DNA of 43,829 nucleotides from assembly GCA_016235085.1 (NCBI GenBank), contig JACRMA010000118.1, positions 1 through 43,829 of the forward strand, read 5' to 3'. The translations under genes were made by a program, and so were the position numbers. Of this stretch, positions 1-36,965 are shown in pieces. Every line of letters begins with the position of its first letter. Position 1 is the first letter of the stretch. The notes below the pieces were generated by a model. It did not search any database and was not told the origin of the DNA. It saw only the letters and a program-made list of their open reading frames with translations. Source of the DNA: Candidatus Zixiibacteriota bacterium (lineage in GTDB: Bacteria > Zixibacteria > MSB-5A5 > WJJR01).

Positions 1-434
1 GGGAGGCCGGGTGCTCGTGACGAGCACTGATCGCTACACTACCCGAGAAACCAACACCCGGGGTGTGGCCGCGGTCTATGACCGCGGCGGCCGAAGGCCG
101 TCATGACCCGGTCGCCTGCGACCCGCTTCCGCTGGCACACGATGCACTTCCGCCTGTAGCACTTATCTCCATCACTCCAGTGTCTCCTATCCCGACCGCC
201 GTGGCGCACTAATCTTCGATCACAGTCATACCAGCGTGACTGCAACTGTTCTGTTGACAGATGGAATACTCCCGGCGTTTATGGGTATTGCTTGGGACGT
301 AGGACAGTGCGCTGACAATTGAATACTCAACCGAAGGGAGGGAACCGATGTGCAGGAACCACCGATCGTGAGCGAACCTGGCGTGCGATATTTCGTTGCG
401 TTGGATTGAGGTGTCTTCATGAAAGGAGGACCCC
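1..434. other. Non-coding left end with two adjacent hairpins
   Basis: I see no convincing gene before the ATG at 435. Two GC-rich inverted repeats lie side by side. The first has a 9-bp stem (68-76 pairing with 80-88, loop TAT). The second has the arms CGGCC (88-92) and GGCCG (96-100) around GAA; both stems use base 88, so they cannot form fully at once. A smaller inverted repeat, GTGCTCGT/ACGAGCAC, lies at 11-27. None has a clear T-run, so calling them terminators would be a guess. The last bases hold the ribosome-binding site of the next gene. Confidence 0.4.
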
Positions 435-1247
435 ATGAAATCAGATAGAACGCTCACTCCAAGTCCAAATGAAACATTGTCTTGCGAGGCTTCGCCGTGG
501 CGAGGACGCCGTCGGTTGAGCGGGTGTATCTTCCTGCTTGGGATTGTCGTTTCTCTCGCAGCCACCCACTTTTGCTACGGGGCTGACAGCACGAAGGCCG
601 TATCTCGGCAGAGACTGGCTGAGTTTCGGAAGGCGTACGCGGTCACCAGCCTCAGCATGGGTGAGTTCGGCGTACCTGAACTGATCAGCGGCGCTTTGTC
701 CACCGGATCGCCCGCTGGATCCCCTGTGGACGTGACGTATGGCTTCCTTGAGGCAAACAAAGACGTCTTCCGAATGACCGACCCACGATCTGAGTTAGTG
801 TTGGTTCGCGATGAGGTGGACAGCTTGACGCACAAGAGGCACCAGAGGTTTCGGCAGCAATATCATGGGATAGAAGTCCGAGGAGGTGGGCTTACCGCTC
901 ATTTCTCCCGAAAGGGGCTGCTTGAGACAATCGGAGCCGAGTGGTACCCGGACATCACTCTCCCACTTCTGCCGTCGGTCTCCGAAGAATCGGCGCTGAG
1001 TGTCTTCTTTGCTGAGCATGGCATTCCCCGATTGTCAGGCCCAGCCCATTCAACGCGCCTGATTGTTCTCCCCTTGCAGAATCGTTACCACCTAGCGTGG
1101 CAGATCAACCTGAGGGACTGGGAGGATTTTGTCGATGCACTGGAGGGCGGAATCATCCTTTCGCTTTCCGCCAGTCGACGATCCCAACCAACCGATAAAG
1201 CGCAACCACGCTCAACGCCCGGTGCCCCACCCGTTAGGGTGGGTTAA
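435..1247 (+). CDS. Secreted protein with M4-type metalloprotease propeptide (FTP/PepSY-like), catalytic domain missing
   Basis: A protein of 270 residues with a hydrophobic segment at about 30-48 that would serve as a signal peptide. The ATG follows an ideal AAAGGAGG eight bases upstream. Residues 100-245 resemble the N-terminal propeptide of thermolysin-family (M4) proteases: an FTP-like stretch around RFRQQYHGIEVRGGGLTAHF, then a PepSY-like stretch ending HLAWQINL. Those proteases normally continue with about 300 residues carrying HEXXH, and none follows here. The last residues (PVRVG) and the TAA stop are encoded by a dispersed palindromic repeat at 1231-1341, so the gene was probably cut short by that insertion. 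The remainder may be a decaying gene or a free inhibitor/chaperone-like propeptide. The family call is from sequence pattern only. Confidence 0.65.
   Translation: MKSDRTLTPSPNETLSCEASPWRGRRRLSGCIFLLGIVVSLAATHFCYGADSTKAVSRQRLAEFRKAYAVTSLSMGEFGVPELISGALSTGSPAGSPVDVTYGFLEANKDVFRMTDPRSELVLVRDEVDSLTHKRHQRFRQQYHGIEVRGGGLTAHFSRKGLLETIGAEWYPDITLPLLPSVSEESALSVFFAEHGIPRLSGPAHSTRLIVLPLQNRYHLAWQINLRDWEDFVDALEGGIILSLSASRRSQPTDKAQPRSTPGAPPVRVG
1226..1243. repeat. Perfect 7-bp palindrome (CCCACCC-GTTA-GGGTGGG)
   Basis: The arms 1226-1232 and 1237-1243 pair perfectly around a GTTA loop. The hairpin lies at the edge of the dispersed repeat and encodes the final residues of the upstream open reading frame. 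A related but degraded CCCACCCTAGCGGG occurs at the matching edge of the second copy near 13694. Confidence 0.7.
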
Positions 1248-1341
1248 CCGTAAGGCCTGCTCACGTTCGAATTCACGCCGCGGATAGTCAGAGGAAATCC
1301 TCTGATTGTCATCGCTCTCACAGAATCATTGCAGGCCCTAC
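1231..1341 (-). repeat. Dispersed ~111-bp repeat, copy 1 (minus orientation)
   Basis: The reverse complement of 1231-1341 aligns without gaps to 13596-13706. By eye about three quarters of positions match, including the shared blocks GTAGGGCCTGC, CTGTGAGA, TTCCTCTG, ATCCGCG and CCCACCCTA. The element has inner arms GGCCTGC (1254-1260) and GCAGGCC (1331-1337) plus a central hairpin CAGAGGA/TCCTCTG. It looks like a small non-autonomous mobile repeat or a conserved structured element. It supplies the stop codon of the preceding gene. Confidence 0.7.
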
Positions 1342-1404
1342 GGCGGTTACCGTAGCGGATCGATACTCGCAGCCGCGTCGTGGGAGGGCGATCCGCCGCG
1401 GCGG

Positions 1405-1457
1405 ACTGCCGAGCCTTGCTTCCGCACGCGAAAGAAGTTCGGCAGGAGCCTCGCCCT
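1405..1457 (-). repeat. GGCGAGGCTCCTGCCGA repeat, copy 1
   Basis: The reverse complement of this stretch starts AGGGCGAGGCTCCTGCCGA and continues with a diverged sequence similar to 34833-34890, where the same 19 bases occur on the plus strand. It fills the gap between the truncated propeptide gene and the end of mobB, so almost all of 1231-1457 is repeat DNA. Confidence 0.55.
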
Positions 1458-1532
1458 TTCAAAACCTTCTCATCGCAAACAGGGGTTAAAACCGCCGGCG
1501 ATTTACGAACCCGCGCTATCCGAAAGCAGCTC

Positions 1533-2093
1533 TCAGTGAAGCTTGACTGGACCGGCCGCCCAATCAATTCGTCCAAAACTGGATCGAATCACATTGGCAA
1601 TCTCTTCAACCGGTTCAAAGTTCAGCACCGGCACATCAGCCGCCATCGGATGATCACTCACAACCGCGATCAGCCCCTGCGCGGTCGTGAAGGACGGCGT
1701 CGTAACCTCCGGATTGAGGATACACTCGACTTTGGGATGCGGCCCGCCGCGGTATCCCTCATAGATGATCAGATCCGGTGGCTGCGGCAACGCCGCAAAC
1801 GTCGCTTCCATCCACCCCTCCGAGGTGTCGCCTCTGTGCGCGGTGTAAAATCCAATTTCATTCTTCGCCACCATCCCGACAGCAATGGCGCCCGCGCGCG
1901 CCAGCCGATCCGAATCGCGCCCCGGTTTGTCGAACCCCGCTTCGTCGGACGTGTGCTTGACCGCCGCCACGCGCAACCCCTGCGCGGTGAAGTGGCGGAC
2001 CAGCCGCTCCGTGAGTGTGGTCTTGCCCGAGTTCTTGTGGCCGACAATCGCCACCGTGGAAATGCGCGCAGGCCTTGCTGCGCCTCCGCTCAT
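1533..2093 (-). CDS. mobB: Molybdopterin-guanine dinucleotide biosynthesis protein MobB
   Basis: A 186-residue GTP-binding protein of the MobB family, which helps MobA attach GMP to molybdopterin to give the bis-MGD cofactor. The P-loop GHKNSGKTT sits at residues 18-26 right after the first beta-strand. The family features that follow include VAAVKHTSDEAGFDKPGRDSDR and the later strand DLIIYEGYRG. Length is normal for a single-domain MobB. Its ATG overlaps the TGA of the upstream M1 peptidase gene as ATGA, so the two are translationally coupled. moaA, another Moco gene, lies about 5.7 kb away on the same strand. The family call is confident. Confidence 0.9.
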   Translation of the reverse strand: MSGGAARPARISTVAIVGHKNSGKTTLTERLVRHFTAQGLRVAAVKHTSDEAGFDKPGRDSDRLARAGAIAVGMVAKNEIGFYTAHRGDTSEGWMEATFAALPQPPDLIIYEGYRGGPHPKVECILNPEVTTPSFTTAQGLIAVVSDHPMAADVPVLNFEPVEEIANVIRSSFGRIDWAAGPVKLH

Positions 2094-4813
2094 TTCTTCG
2101 ACCCTTTGGGCGCCGCTCCCGAGGTGGTCGTATCGGCGGTCTTGGCCGGGCCCATCAACGCATCAAATCGCTTTTCCAAAACATCGATTCGGTCTTCCAT
2201 CCGCTTTCGGTCCTCGCCGGCCTCGTCGAGTTTGCGCGCCGTCTCATTCGGTGTTTCGTCGGGCTTCTTGTCCCGAATCGCGCTGATTGCCGCCCGCGCC
2301 GCCCGTTGCTCGGACGGCTGTGGGCTTTGCTTCGCCACCCGGTCCAAAGCCGGGATCGCCGCCTCAACCCCAAGCGCCCCGAGCGCGTTCATCACCGGCT
2401 GGCGAAAATTCTTGTTACGGTCACCGAGATATTTCTCCAGTGCCACCCGATAACGGTCCAGCTTCGTCTTGTCCGTCTCGAATTCCGCCAGTGCGCCGAT
2501 CAGTCCCACCGCCGCACCACGCACCGGCGTCGGATGGCCGGGCGTGGCGTAACGCAGTCCCAGATCGATCAGCGCGGGGTCCTTGCTTCGTTCCAGAGCC
2601 GTGAACGCGTCGCTCGCAATCGTGTGTTTCTCGGATGGCTGATCGAGTGCCCACCGCGCCAGAGACTTGCCGCGTTGGGGATCAACCATCGATGCCGCAT
2701 CAACCGCGGAACCGCGCAACGGCGCCGGGGCATTCGAACGCGCGATCGCCTCGAGTCGGGCGAACGCACGCTGATTGTTGTCGAACTTGCCAATCGCGTA
2801 AATGACGCTGTTGCGGGTGGACAGATCGGGATCGTCGAGCCCGAGCAAGAGCGAATCCAGCGCTTCCTCTCCGCCCATCTTCGCCAGCGCGTCCGCCGCT
2901 GTACGGCGCACCGCCGGTTGCCGATCGCGGCGCAACGCTGCGGTGAGCGCCGCCAGGCTCCCCGCCGATTTCTCGTGCTTTCCCAATCCCTCGACCGCGC
3001 GCATTCTGGCCAACACGCGCTGGGGATCTCTTGACTGGGTGATCAAAACCGGCGTGGCGGGGTCATAATCGATGTCCGCCAGCAGCCATCCCTCCGGATC
3101 GATCAGAATGTACATCGGTGGATTCGAAACCGGAATGAACAGCGTGTTGTCGAGCTTGTCGATTCTCACCGTGTAATGTTCGCGCCCCGGCGCCGTCACA
3201 CATTCAATCGCCAATGGAATGTCGAACACCGGTGTCACGGCATCGACTTTCTGCGTCTGCTTGACGTCGATGCGCAACAGCCGCGTCTCGCCATCAAACG
3301 ATGTCTGAACCTTCAGTTGGGGATGGCCACCGTGGTAGATCCACTGGTCGAAGAATCCGTCAAAGTCCCTGCCGGAGACCGTCTCCAGTGCCCGCTTGAA
3401 ATCCTCTGTTTCGACCGGGCGCACCGCATTGTCCGTCACATAGCGATGAATCGCCGCCCACCACAGCGAATCTCCCAGCATCCCATGGATCATGTGCAAC
3501 ACGGCGCCGCCACGGCTGTACGCGTAGCCGTCAAACAGCCGTCCCGGATCATTGTACTGATGTTGGACAGTCGAGCGCCGGTAGCCACGGGATGCCCCCA
3601 TACCGCCCTCCTGCGTTCCATTCACACTGATCAGGAATCGATCGTGCCCCCAGCGATGTCCATCCCAAAGATCCCCAAAGTAAGTCGCAAATCCCTCATT
3701 CAGCCAATTGTGCGCCCAATCACGGCACGTCAGCAAATCGCCGAACCACTGATGCGCCAGTTCGTGAGCGATCAGCCCGTTGGACCGGTCCCGGTAAAAG
3801 TCGTGCGCTTCCGCGCCGTGAAGCGTGCGCTCCGCCTCGATGGTCATCGAGGCGTTCTCCATTCCGCCATAGGTAAAATCGGATACGAACACCTGCGCGT
3901 ATTTCTCGAATGGAAACGGCACCCCGATTTTCTGCGCGAAGAACTCGATCATTCCCGGCGTCTCACCCGCCGATCGTTTGAGTTTCTCGCCTTCGCCTTT
4001 ACGGCAGTAATAGGTAACGGGAAGGCCATCGATTGTCTTCTCCGCAAGTGAGTCAAATGCTCCCACCGCCACGGCGATCAGGTAATTGCTGATTGGAACT
4101 TTCTCGACCCAATTGAAAGTGCGCGAACCATCGGGATGTTCATCGAGCCGCACCATGGCGCCGTTCGAAACGACGACGTTCGGACGAGGAGTCGTCACGG
4201 AAATGGCGGCCGTCGCCTTGTCATCCGGGTAGTCGTAGCCGGGGAACCAATACCGGTTATCCTCCTCCTCCCCCTGCGACCAGATCATCGGCATCTTCTC
4301 CGGGTCTTCCTTGACCGAGGGAATGTAGTACAGCCCCATCTCCGGCTCGCCATGGTAGTAGATTTGAATCCAGGTCGTCTCCGGAGGACTCACCGGTTTC
4401 GCAAACGTCACTTCCAGGCCATGACCGGGAACGGTGAACGTCAGGCTGGCGCCGTTTGCATCTTTGATGCTGTCGATGGTCAATCGTTCCGAATCCAGTC
4501 GCAGCCGCTCCAATCGCGGGAGAATCGGCGCGAAAGTCAGCGTGACCGACCCGGCAACCCGCACAATCAGGGGATCCAGCTCGACGTCAATCCTGGTATC
4601 GATCACATCGACCTGCCGGTCTCGTCCCCAATGCCACGCCACCGAATCCGCCGCCCAGCGCGCATCGGCCACGTCCGCGTGAGCGCGTGAGCCAACGCCC
4701 CAGCCAGAGGCCAGTGAGACCAGGATTGCCGCAAGTAGGAACCACCGAACGGGACGATGGAGACAGGTGGAATGGGCAGCTTTACACTCAGAATCAGGGA
4801 AGATTCGGAACAT
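2090..4813 (-). CDS. Secreted M1-family zinc aminopeptidase with C-terminal HEAT repeats
   Basis: A protein of 907 residues from the ATG at 4813, chosen because GAGAGGAG lies seven bases upstream and a signal peptide (RWFLLAAILVSLASGWG) follows. The longer frame to 5023 lacks both. The M1 signatures are clear: the exopeptidase motif GGMENAS at 316-322, then the zinc site HELAHQWFGD with His350, Glu351 and His354, and Glu373 in NEGFATYFG. An N-terminal beta domain (about 50-270) precedes the catalytic part. After about residue 620 come alpha-helical HEAT-like repeats, then a charged coiled coil near the end. It probably trims peptides in the periplasm or at the surface. The TGA overlaps the mobB start codon. 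Confidence 0.93.
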   Translation of the reverse strand: MFRIFPDSECKAAHSTCLHRPVRWFLLAAILVSLASGWGVGSRAHADVADARWAADSVAWHWGRDRQVDVIDTRIDVELDPLIVRVAGSVTLTFAPILPRLERLRLDSERLTIDSIKDANGASLTFTVPGHGLEVTFAKPVSPPETTWIQIYYHGEPEMGLYYIPSVKEDPEKMPMIWSQGEEEDNRYWFPGYDYPDDKATAAISVTTPRPNVVVSNGAMVRLDEHPDGSRTFNWVEKVPISNYLIAVAVGAFDSLAEKTIDGLPVTYYCRKGEGEKLKRSAGETPGMIEFFAQKIGVPFPFEKYAQVFVSDFTYGGMENASMTIEAERTLHGAEAHDFYRDRSNGLIAHELAHQWFGDLLTCRDWAHNWLNEGFATYFGDLWDGHRWGHDRFLISVNGTQEGGMGASRGYRRSTVQHQYNDPGRLFDGYAYSRGGAVLHMIHGMLGDSLWWAAIHRYVTDNAVRPVETEDFKRALETVSGRDFDGFFDQWIYHGGHPQLKVQTSFDGETRLLRIDVKQTQKVDAVTPVFDIPLAIECVTAPGREHYTVRIDKLDNTLFIPVSNPPMYILIDPEGWLLADIDYDPATPVLITQSRDPQRVLARMRAVEGLGKHEKSAGSLAALTAALRRDRQPAVRRTAADALAKMGGEEALDSLLLGLDDPDLSTRNSVIYAIGKFDNNQRAFARLEAIARSNAPAPLRGSAVDAASMVDPQRGKSLARWALDQPSEKHTIASDAFTALERSKDPALIDLGLRYATPGHPTPVRGAAVGLIGALAEFETDKTKLDRYRVALEKYLGDRNKNFRQPVMNALGALGVEAAIPALDRVAKQSPQPSEQRAARAAISAIRDKKPDETPNETARKLDEAGEDRKRMEDRIDVLEKRFDALMGPAKTADTTTSGAAPKGSKK

Positions 4814-5138
4814 AATGTCTCCTCTCAATCGACCAGGAGCAATTGTCTTTGACCTGCTTGTAAGTTCGAGTCGGCATTCGCGCCATTCTGATACGGCGAG
4901 CGGGAACCGCGCAGCCATCATACCCAATATTCTTGCCGATTCCAAGCCATTCCTGCTGCGGGGTCGATGCAGATCGCTTGACCGATGCCCACGGACGCTC
5001 CGACGGCCGTAATCCCACGGCATGGATCCATAACCGGATTCCCTTGGCTTCCTGGGGACCGATGAAGTATCATTCGTCAGGTACTAATGAGTCGGGCTTG
5101 CATGATGAGTCAGTGCCGCTGGATCCCGGCTGAATCCG
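4814..5138. promoter_or_regulatory. Divergent intergenic region between the M1 peptidase and the Wzy-like gene
   Basis: These 325 bases separate two divergently transcribed genes and should hold promoters for both. The peptidase ribosome-binding site (AGGAG on the minus strand, 4819-4825) is the only element I can name. No gene, strong hairpin or repeat was found, and no convincing -35/-10 pair stood out. Confidence 0.35.
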
Positions 5139-12382: not shown

Positions 12383-13267
12383 TTGCTTCGCACCTCTCCC
12401 AAGACTTCCCGCGCCGTTGCGCACGCCGGCCTTTTCTACGCCGCCGCGATCTGGGGCTCCACATTCTTCCTGGTCAAGCAAGCCATCAGCGGCGTTCACC
12501 CGATCACCCTCATCGCCTATCGTTTTCTGATTGCCGCCTTGATCATGCTGGTATTCTTGCTGGTGACAAGACGCCCGCTGAGCCGCGAATTGGGCCGGGG
12601 ACTCATCCTCGGATTGGTCATTTGGGTGGAATATGTCGCCCAGACCATCGGGCTGACCATGACCACGGCGGCGAATTCCGGGTTTATCACCGGGCTGTTT
12701 GTGGTCTTCATTCCCGTCTTCCTCGCCGTCTTTTTCCGCTCGAATCCGCCGCGTCTGGAATGGCTGGCGGCGCTGGTCGCCATTGCCGGACTATGGGTGC
12801 TCACCGGCGGCCTCAAGCACATGAACTCCGGCGATGCGCTGACGCTCATCGCCGCGGTCCTGTATGCGCTCCACGTCCTGCTGACCGACCGGTTCATGAA
12901 GCGCGGCGCCGACCCCATTGCCCTGACCTTTCAGCAGTTCGCAATCGTGGGATTGTTGAGTCTGCTGACAATGGTCGTCTTTCGCATCCCGACGTCTGTG
13001 CAAACTTCGGGAACCACCTGGGCAATCGTCTTCCTCGCCTTGTTCCCAACCCTGTCGGCCTACATCATCCAGGTGTACGCCCAACGGATCATCTCGCCGG
13101 TCCGCGTCTCGCTCATCTTCGCTTTCGAACCAGTCTTCGGCGGAATCTTCGCCTGGACTCTCGGCGGCGAAACCGTCCACCTGAACAGCGCACTGGGCGG
13201 ATTCCTCATCTTTGTGGCGCTCGTGATCTCGGGATTCTCGGCGCCTGCGGAGAAGAGCGCACAATGA
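12383..13267 (+). CDS. EamA/DMT-family transporter
   Basis: 294 residues forming ten predicted membrane helices arranged as two EamA halves. The first half opens with AAIWGSTFFLVKQAISGV and the second with DALTLIAAVLYALHVLLTDRFMK. The conserved FAFEPVFGGIFAWTLGGE near the end is typical of RhaT/YdcZ-like drug/metabolite transporters. The start is TTG 12383; there is no ATG before the first helix. The substrate cannot be told from the sequence. It follows the glycosidase-like gene closely. Confidence 0.85.
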   Translation: MLRTSPKTSRAVAHAGLFYAAAIWGSTFFLVKQAISGVHPITLIAYRFLIAALIMLVFLLVTRRPLSRELGRGLILGLVIWVEYVAQTIGLTMTTAANSGFITGLFVVFIPVFLAVFFRSNPPRLEWLAALVAIAGLWVLTGGLKHMNSGDALTLIAAVLYALHVLLTDRFMKRGADPIALTFQQFAIVGLLSLLTMVVFRIPTSVQTSGTTWAIVFLALFPTLSAYIIQVYAQRIISPVRVSLIFAFEPVFGGIFAWTLGGETVHLNSALGGFLIFVALVISGFSAPAEKSAQ

Positions 13268-13398: not shown

Positions 13399-13595
13399 CC
13401 AGTCCTCCCTCACACACTGGGTTCACTGCCTACGCGGGAGTGACGCCAATGGAGAATCGACGGGCATAGGAGCCTGGTGCTCCACCCGAAGGAGGATTGT
13501 TGAAAAACCGGGCAGACAAGAGTGTCTGCCCCACTCTAGGTCATGGAAGTTGATGCTGGGGCATTTCAACACACCCGGAGCGTGGGAGAATTCTA

Positions 13596-13706
13596 GTAGG
13601 GCCTGCTAAGATCCTGTGAGAACGAAAACGATCAGGGGAATTCCTCTGTTCATCCGCGCTATGATTTCGATTCCAAGCTGGCCGTACGAATATCCCACCC
13701 TAGCGG
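13596..13706 (+). repeat. Dispersed ~111-bp repeat, copy 2
   Basis: Matches the reverse complement of 1231-1341 over its full length without gaps, with about three quarters of bases identical by hand count. It keeps the GTAGGGCCTGC head, the central palindrome around GGGGAATTCCTC and the CCCACCCTAGCGG tail. Here it lies between genes, in contrast to copy 1, which overlaps a coding sequence. Confidence 0.7.
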
Positions 13707-13837: not shown

Positions 13838-13928
13838 TGATGTCGTTGCGAGGCGCGGCTCTTTGCGCCGAAGCAACCTCCCCCTTACGCAACTGTCGCC
13901 ACCTTTCGGAGGGCTTCTTCAACACGCC
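13838..13928 (+). repeat. GCAACCTCCCCC repeat, copy B
   Basis: Begins GTCGTTGCGAGG and ends near TTCTTCAACACGCC. Thirty-four bases (13842-13875) are identical to 36851-36884 (copy C), and 26 bases are an exact inverted match to copy A. An internal stem GGCGC/GCGCC surrounds GGCTCTTT. Confidence 0.8.
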
Positions 13929-14023
13929 GAAGCGGGTGGGGCACCATTCGCCGCGACGGTGGGCAGACTTCAAATCATCGAGCGGCAAACTGCCGCTCTG
14001 TGGGGGCGGGTCGATTCCAAGGA

Positions 14024-36802: not shown

Positions 36803-36850
36803 CACATCATTTTCCGGCATCCGTCACAATGTCATTGCAATGACAGATGT

Positions 36851-36940
36851 GTCGTTGCGAGGCGCGGCTCTTTGCGCCGAAGCACCCCCCCCTTGCACAA
36901 CTGCCGCCGCTCTTCAGAGAACTTCTTCAACACGCCCATC
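36851..36940 (+). repeat. GCAACC repeat, copy C
   Basis: Starts with 34 bases identical to 13842-13875 and continues with similarity to TTCTTCAACACGCC. It is bracketed by the two GACGCCCCGC hairpins. Confidence 0.8.
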
Positions 36941-36965
36941 CGGCCCATGCCGCCCCCCATACAAA

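What the first reader, a model, noticed from the sequence alone, without database searches (positions are those of the whole stretch)
435..1341. A dispersed repeat supplies the stop codon of a truncated metalloprotease propeptide gene
Codons for PVRVG and the TAA at 1245-1247 fall within the repeat at 1231-1341, and the rest of an M4 protease is missing. So either the repeat inserted and cut the gene, or a propeptide-only protein took its end from the repeat. The strong ribosome-binding site and intact signal peptide hint the product may still be made.
Basis: partly seen in the sequence, partly recalled or inferred. Interest (0 to 1): 0.55.

Follow-up and report, generated by a model that had tools for sequence, protein, structure and literature searches.

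The report
Stand-alone protease propeptide ending in repeat
A bacterium of the phylum Zixibacteriota carries a secreted 'safety-catch' part of a protein-cutting enzyme as a gene of its own, its last eight codons and stop supplied by a small repeated DNA element; relatives have similar lone genes, a few lying directly behind an enzyme in which no safety catch was found, so these pieces may work as separate partners.

Summary
Observation confirmed, with corrections. ORF 435-1247 (270 aa) is a signal-peptide-like start plus a whole M4/M36-type prodomain (FTP-PepSY; Pfam FTP, family profile, AlphaFold and PDB fold agree). No catalytic domain follows. The repeat begins at 1221, at a codon boundary, and supplies GAPPVRVG plus TAA. 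It is an incomplete copy of a ~150-bp quasi-palindromic MITE/REPIN-like element (7 places here, 6 in a congener at E<1e-3). Insertion alone cannot explain the missing part: nothing of it lies behind the element. Five of six close genus members can be read to their end; all five are propeptide-only, and four take their stop from a repeat (two this element, two the next gene's upstream module). After sorting, 20 stand-alone prodomain genes remain in 10 of 110 genomes of the class; of the 19 besides the window's, one (congener) has this element. The genus family is mosaic; two gene pairs show purifying selection. In two other genomes, M4 protease genes with no detectable prodomain are followed directly by a stand-alone prodomain gene. 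Best explanation: a repeat-trimmed free prodomain acting in trans as inhibitor or foldase. Anatomy is well supported, function inferred; a decaying fragment is the main rival.

The parts
6..350 (+). Upstream module 'UP': hairpin repeat (about 66-103), TTGACA-like box 254-259, RBS GAAGGGAGGG, ATG 348-350
   Evidence: Nine copies in two genomes, each in front of a gene of the FTP/prodomain family; no sigma-70-type promoter passed the scan of 1-1540
348..371 (+). Possible 7-codon leader ORF (MCRNHRS); M[GC][KER]N[HQ]RS in 4 genes
   Evidence: translation not shown
435..1247 (+). Stand-alone secreted FTP-PepSY prodomain gene, 270 aa
435..584 (+). Signal-peptide region, about aa 1-50
   Evidence: hydrophobic stretch after basic residues, read from the sequence; pLDDT 43-49 by blocks of ten; no signal-peptide predictor was available
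615..1154 (+). Folded prodomain core, aa 61-240
   Evidence: pLDDT 84-98 by blocks of ten; family profile reaches thermolysin entry 5a3y at E 1e-21; Foldseek 3nqz_A, 3nqy_A, 4k90_B
792..929 (+). FTP motif PF07504 (aa 120-165)
1221..1345 (+). MITE/REPIN-like quasi-palindromic element; left terminal repeat intact, right terminal repeat not recognisable; right border approximate
1245..1247 (+). TAA stop inside the element
13594..13706 (-). Second copy of the element in the window, 76% identical, behind the ORF that ends at 13267
1380..1460 (+). A different, abundant hairpin repeat (GGGAGGGCGA...)
   Evidence: most of the 49 matches

Best explanation
The locus encodes a secreted stand-alone prodomain of the thermolysin/fungalysin type. 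It descends from a full-length FTP-PepSY-linker-metalloprotease gene whose C-terminal part was lost. The present 3' end runs into a MITE/REPIN-like element that supplies eight codons and the stop. It belongs to a mosaic gene family with a duplicated upstream module; in the five members whose end can be read, the break lies behind the prodomain (genes broken inside it would have been hard to find with this query). Shown: anatomy, family, repeat, mosaicism, and separate prodomain genes elsewhere, a few behind M4 genes without a detectable prodomain. Inferred: the protein is made and acts in trans, binding a metalloprotease as inhibitor or folding helper. Likely targets are the M36/M4 enzymes of the same cell, including the M36 genes behind the same upstream module.
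For: Whole prodomain by Pfam FTP, profile and fold. Five of five readable close genus members are propeptide-only; the sixth runs off its contig. 20 stand-alone cases in 10 of 110 genomes (5 of them in the genus, 15 in 8 other genomes). Purifying selection: omega 0.32 (2dlnL 15.1) for G001 C20/C23a, 0.24 (41.7) for the C81A/G001 C20 core. Split M4/prodomain gene pairs: N-termini of the two whole M4 proteins show no prodomain (hhalign 1.7% and 1.9%), their neighbours match the window family (98.1% and 99.1%; Pfam). Full-length relatives. Shared upstream module.
Against: The window gene has no M4/M36 gene beside it (its neighbours are MobB and an M1 aminopeptidase, convergent). Proteases of the own genome that were tested mostly carry their own FTP: C52 and C139 and C21; C81B gave no Pfam hit but aligns with the prodomain half of G001 C67 at 55%. 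omega for the window core is saturated, and its signal-peptide part is not clearly constrained (0.82, 2dlnL 0.23). Selection in relatives may predate truncation. One of the two prodomain neighbours tested by hhalign (L202:3082-3831) has no Pfam FTP or PepSY hit. No expression data.
Confidence: 0.5

Rival explanations
1. Decaying fragment: the gene is a remnant of an M4-type protease gene whose C-terminal part was deleted; the open frame of the prodomain simply has not decayed yet.
For: The C-terminal part and any remnant are gone; the different 3' break points in relatives look like passive loss; no clear constraint on the signal-peptide part.
Against: About 245 codons open with a whole predicted fold; purifying selection in two related pairs; stand-alone genes recur in 10 genomes, some in protease-prodomain gene pairs.
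Confidence: 0.35
2. The element inserted into a full-length gene and by itself cut it.
For: Left terminal repeat is intact at 1221 and the stop lies in the element.
Against: No coding remnant seen behind the element (1345-1533) and the right terminal repeat is missing, so a deletion is needed as well; 18 of 19 other stand-alone loci lack the element.
Confidence: 0.08
3. Off-state of a switching locus: the C-terminal part can be restored by recombination between repeats or with paralogues (mosaic family, shared upstream module, poly-C/G tracts that split two M36 siblings).
For: Mosaic identities; upstream modules alignable over longer stretches within than between genomes; poly-C14 and poly-G11 tracts in the frame overlap between prodomain and M36 part of C81B and C21.
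Against: No M4 part of the right type found in the genome; no tract in the window gene; metagenome assembly may misread homopolymers.
Confidence: 0.07

Closest known systems
Prodomains of M4/M36 metalloproteases (entries 5a3y, 3nqy/3nqz, 4k90; that the matched chains or parts are the prodomains is recalled)
   Same: Sequence profile covers positions 58-241; the three best fold matches, with moderate TM-scores of 0.50-0.56 by target length
   Different: Here the prodomain is a gene of its own with no catalytic part
SUB1-ProM, stand-alone subtilisin propeptide-like inhibitor of Plasmodium (PMC6993865, abstract read)
   Same: A propeptide encoded alone; in that case beside protease genes and a tested inhibitor
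   Different: Unrelated propeptide and protease family, a eukaryote; no inhibition shown here
Bacterial MITE/ORF fusions: ERIC, Yersinia palindromic sequence/RU-2, RU-3, Rickettsia palindromic elements (PMC2229807 and PMC10969869, passages read)
   Same: A small mobile repeat supplies codons to a chromosomal ORF, for RU-3 at a C-terminal end
   Different: A different element, not in Rfam; here it also gives the stop of a secreted prodomain, in two species
REPINs (PMC3116915, search listing only)
   Same: Two hairpin repeats in inverted order around a spacer (REPIN anatomy recalled)
   Different: Longer spacer with its own palindrome; few copies found; partner transposase not looked for

Membership tests
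M4/M36 prodomain (FTP-PepSY) | FTP motif above the curated cut-off | tested here: met
   41.3 bits against 21
M4/M36 prodomain (FTP-PepSY) | PepSY half present | tested here: inconclusive
   No Pfam PepSY hit even at E 10; the family profile aligns through the C-terminal half of the 5a3y prodomain (to position 241) and the fold matches
M4/M36 prodomain (FTP-PepSY) | Catalytic domain in cis | tested here: not met
   Stop at 1245; none behind it
MITE / REPIN-like element | Terminal inverted repeats | tested here: met
   Four copies (C12, C60, C53, G001 C66) of the 12 aligned have both GGTGCC.../...GGCACC-type ends; the window copy has only the left one
MITE / REPIN-like element | Dispersed copies | tested here: met
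   7 + 6 places at E<1e-3 in two genomes
MITE / REPIN-like element | Target-site duplication | tested here: inconclusive
   None evident by eye in the flanks printed
MITE / REPIN-like element | Partner transposase | not tested
Stand-alone propeptide inhibitor | Prodomain encoded alone, with a secretion signal | tested here: met
   (signal read by eye)
Stand-alone propeptide inhibitor | Gene lies beside a cognate protease | tested here: not met
   Not in the window; met in G036:C39 and G109:C210
Stand-alone propeptide inhibitor | Inhibits or folds a protease in trans | not testable with these tools
   needs a bench assay

The most novel reading that the evidence does not exclude
Zixibacteriota encode split zymogens: M4 proteases made without a prodomain, with the prodomain supplied in trans by a neighbouring or distant gene. 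In the window's genus this has become a recombining family of free prodomains behind one shared upstream module together with M36 proteases whose poly-C/G linker tracts may switch them on and off, so that the ratio of free prodomain to protease is adjustable, and repeats fix the 3' ends.
Probability: 0.22. Interest if true: 0.75.

Novelty: new variant of a known kind. Interest (0 to 1): 0.48.

Why it matters
Prodomains of thermolysin-like enzymes are textbook cis-acting parts (recalled). Separately encoded prodomains directly behind M4 genes without one would make trans folding and inhibition in this family directly testable in natural pairs. The window gene shows how such free prodomains can arise: loss of the C-terminal part, with a small mobile repeat providing the new end. 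The repeat-ORF fusion by itself is a known kind of event.

Tried and rejected
Rfam scan of 1-5000: no match up to E 1. Genome contigs with the single protein: no relative; with the family alignment: 16 loci, which named the congener's contigs by their lengths. Orthologous site in the congener: its contig C31 starts inside the M1 aminopeptidase gene, so the site could not be seen; in G006 no FTP gene lies beside mobB. Sigma-70-type promoter in 1-1540: none. Pairwise omega for window core pairs: saturated. NCBIfam: no match of the window protein near a cut-off. The idea that the lost part was only an anchor domain was dropped after (M4 domains follow). Of the 31 short ORFs (480 aa or less) among 108 listed matches I removed 8 at contig edges (two of them, G094:C55 and G031:C79, by position only), 1 split at poly-G (C21), 1 with a frameshifted M36 part (second G008:C16) and 1 not examined (G001:C5), leaving 20. 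The profile used was built from an alignment that contains short members. Literature: eight searches; no listed title or abstract start was about separately encoded M4 prodomains; three papers were opened; most subscription papers are not held.

Full report
What is in the window. The ORF 435-1247 encodes 270 aa. Pfam gives FTP, the fungalysin/thermolysin propeptide motif, at 1.4e-10, and no PepSY. A profile of the family (A4, 11 rows) reaches the thermolysin entry 5a3y at 1e-21 over profile positions 58-241, and Mcp02 (1.5e-8), an extracellular metalloproteinase (4k90_B, 0.0017) and pro-elastase more weakly. AlphaFold with 14 rows gives pLDDT 84-98 by blocks of ten for residues 61-240, 43-49 for residues 1-50, and 48 and 60 for the last two blocks; mean 80.3, pTM 0.68. 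The three Foldseek hits under E 0.001 are 3nqz_A, 3nqy_A and 4k90_B (TM-scores 0.35-0.40 by query, 0.50-0.56 by target length). So the protein is a whole prodomain with a signal-peptide-like start and a tail, predicted with low confidence, whose last eight residues come from a repeat. No catalytic domain follows; the next genes are a convergent MobB and an M1 aminopeptidase.

The repeat. The element starts at 1221, where its terminal repeat GGTGCCCCACCC coincides with codon 263, and gives GAPPVRVG plus TAA. Full copies (C12, C60 and C53 of the own genome, C66 of the congener G001) are about 150 bp with inverted ends and a central palindrome. A covariance model finds 7 places in the own genome and 6 in G001 at E<1e-3, several on both strands because the element is quasi-palindromic (four of the 13 trained the model, and not all first-look candidates were scored). 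The window copy lacks the right end. In G001 the gene on C20 ends in the same element at a different linker position, and there the left end is missing, which speaks for a deletion running into an element, not a clean insertion. In the window, too, insertion alone would leave the C-terminal coding part behind the element; it is not there.

The family in the genus. The own genome has two further close members, C81A (42%) and C38 (38%); G001 has three, C20, C23a and C23b (45, 45 and 41%). Five of the six can be read to their end and none of these has a catalytic domain; C23a runs off its contig. The window gene and G001 C20 stop in the element; C81A and G001 C23b stop in the left part of the upstream module of the next gene; C38 ends without either repeat. 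Thus 4 of 5 readable genes take their stop from a repeat. That may be no more than cut frames running into repeats. C81A and C23b keep a piece (TIMIEG.., IMTEGFEGAFP..) that resembles the start of the region after the linker in full-length relatives, so their ancestors were probably longer. G016:C24 and G030:C19 are such full-length proteins: FTP, Peptidase_M4 and M4_C above the Pfam cut-offs in both, CARDB above it in the first and PepSY in the second (below it in the other). A search with the C-terminal part found only C52 and C139 in the own genome, two M4 ORFs with their own FTP; the excised piece was not found.

Mosaicism and the shared upstream module. Nucleotide identity between C81A and G001 C20 is 0.48 at window residues 121-150 but 0.95-0.99 at 181-240; G001 C20 and C23a are 0.94-1.00 alike over the first 180 residues, 0.87 at 181-210 and 0.63-0.67 after that. 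One housekeeping gene (UvrD) is 90% identical between the two genomes. The upstream module (window 6-350) has nine copies, four here and five in G001, each in front of a gene of this prodomain family; for C81B and G001 C67 the family link is by similarity, as Pfam FTP is absent or below the cut-off. No copy was found at C38. The copies in front of the window gene, C81B and C21 are 87-88% alike over 341-344 nt; copies of the two genomes align over only 36-102 nt, at 78-97%. Coding orthology crosses genomes: C81B with G001 C67 55/60% (prodomain/catalytic half), C21 with G001 C23c 46/49%, other pairs 30-42%. C81A has a shortened module. This fits gene conversion or repeated duplication of the module, or replacement of its left part between species.

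Selection. These do not prove selection after truncation, C23a's end is unknown, and mosaicism disturbs such estimates.

Stand-alone prodomains in the class. A search of 110 genomes of the class at 80% completeness or more found matches in 63. Of 108 listed matches, 31 lie in ORFs of 480 aa or less; after removal of 8 at contig edges, two split genes and one not examined, 20 remain in 10 genomes: 5 in the genus and 15 in 8 other genomes. The element's model was run on the 19 loci other than the window's: only G001 C20 has it. In two genomes of one family the arrangement is striking. G109:C210 has an M4 gene (641 aa, HEWAH), then a 277-aa prodomain ORF whose first ATG comes one base after the M4 stop (a start 22 codons further in would suit a signal peptide better), then a secreted protein not tested with Pfam. 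G036:C39 has an M4 gene (657 aa), a 250-aa prodomain gene 77 bases on, a secreted protein with a below-cut-off dockerin match, then an N-terminally cut M4 ORF and a second prodomain gene. Profile comparison finds no prodomain in the N-terminal 204 and 236 residues of the two whole M4 proteins (G109 1.7%, G036 1.9%), while their neighbours, tested the same way, match the window family (G109 99.1%, G036 98.1%). By Pfam alone the G036 neighbour has neither FTP nor PepSY, and the G109 neighbour has PepSY above and FTP below the cut-off. One further site (G036:C117) has an M4 remnant before the prodomain gene, and one (G109:C141) a subtilase. At the other 10 stand-alone genes outside the genus, tblastn with M4, M36 and S8 queries found no catalytic part in the stretch held.

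Reading. Stand-alone prodomains are a recurrent, partly protease-linked gene type in this class, so the window gene is more likely a free prodomain than mere debris, although debris cannot be excluded. Activity in trans of a lone propeptide has been shown for the unrelated SUB1-ProM (PMC6993865, abstract). I recall an experiment in which the thermolysin prosequence worked in trans, but found no paper of it here. Repeat-ORF fusions in bacteria are known (PMC2229807 and PMC10969869, passages). What would be new is the natural split between M4 proteases and their prodomains.

Taxonomy. The contig lengths of G001 C20 and C23 equal those of JAKAKI010000037.1 and JAKAKI010000074.1 (isolate WY4.bin59), and that of G030:C1 equals JAKEHY010000038.1, 'Candidatus Zixiibacteriota bacterium'. 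The window's genome shares a genus with G001 and a class with G030.

Noticed in passing
L208:454-4158 (G109:C210) and L202:1031-7552 (G036:C39): M4 protease genes without a detectable prodomain followed directly by stand-alone FTP-PepSY genes and another secreted protein ('cohesin-like' is my recall, not a Pfam hit): possible split zymogens.
   Followed up: yes
L091:1641-1651 (G000:C21) and G000:C81:14138-14151: Poly-G11 and poly-C14 tracts in the frame overlap where prodomain and M36 part of two sibling proteases fall out of frame; the genome has 15 C/G tracts of 9 or more, three of them in this family (the third in C38). Phase variation or assembly error.
   Followed up: partly
window 348-371: 7-codon leader ORF, conserved in four family members, between the first ribosome-binding site and the gene.
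   Followed up: partly
window 1380-1460: Another hairpin repeat (GGGAGGGCGATCCGCCGCGG...) that accounts for most of the 49 genome matches.
   Followed up: no
L202:4860-4990 (G036:C39): The second M4 ORF of G036 is cut at its N-terminus beside a GCAGTCCGCCGCGGCGGACTGC palindrome; a similar one lies near window 1388.
   Followed up: partly
L203:2900-3566 (G036:C117): An M4 gene matched only at its first 37 residues and from about residue 458 on still stands before an intact prodomain gene.
   Followed up: partly
window 13841-13940 and 36850-36943: Further direct and inverted repeats of about 40-76 nt with GTTGCGAGGCGCGGCTC.
   Followed up: no
G001:C23:20091-20202: Run of C-rich low-complexity sequence at the linker of the G001 M36 gene, perhaps an assembly artefact.
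   Followed up: no
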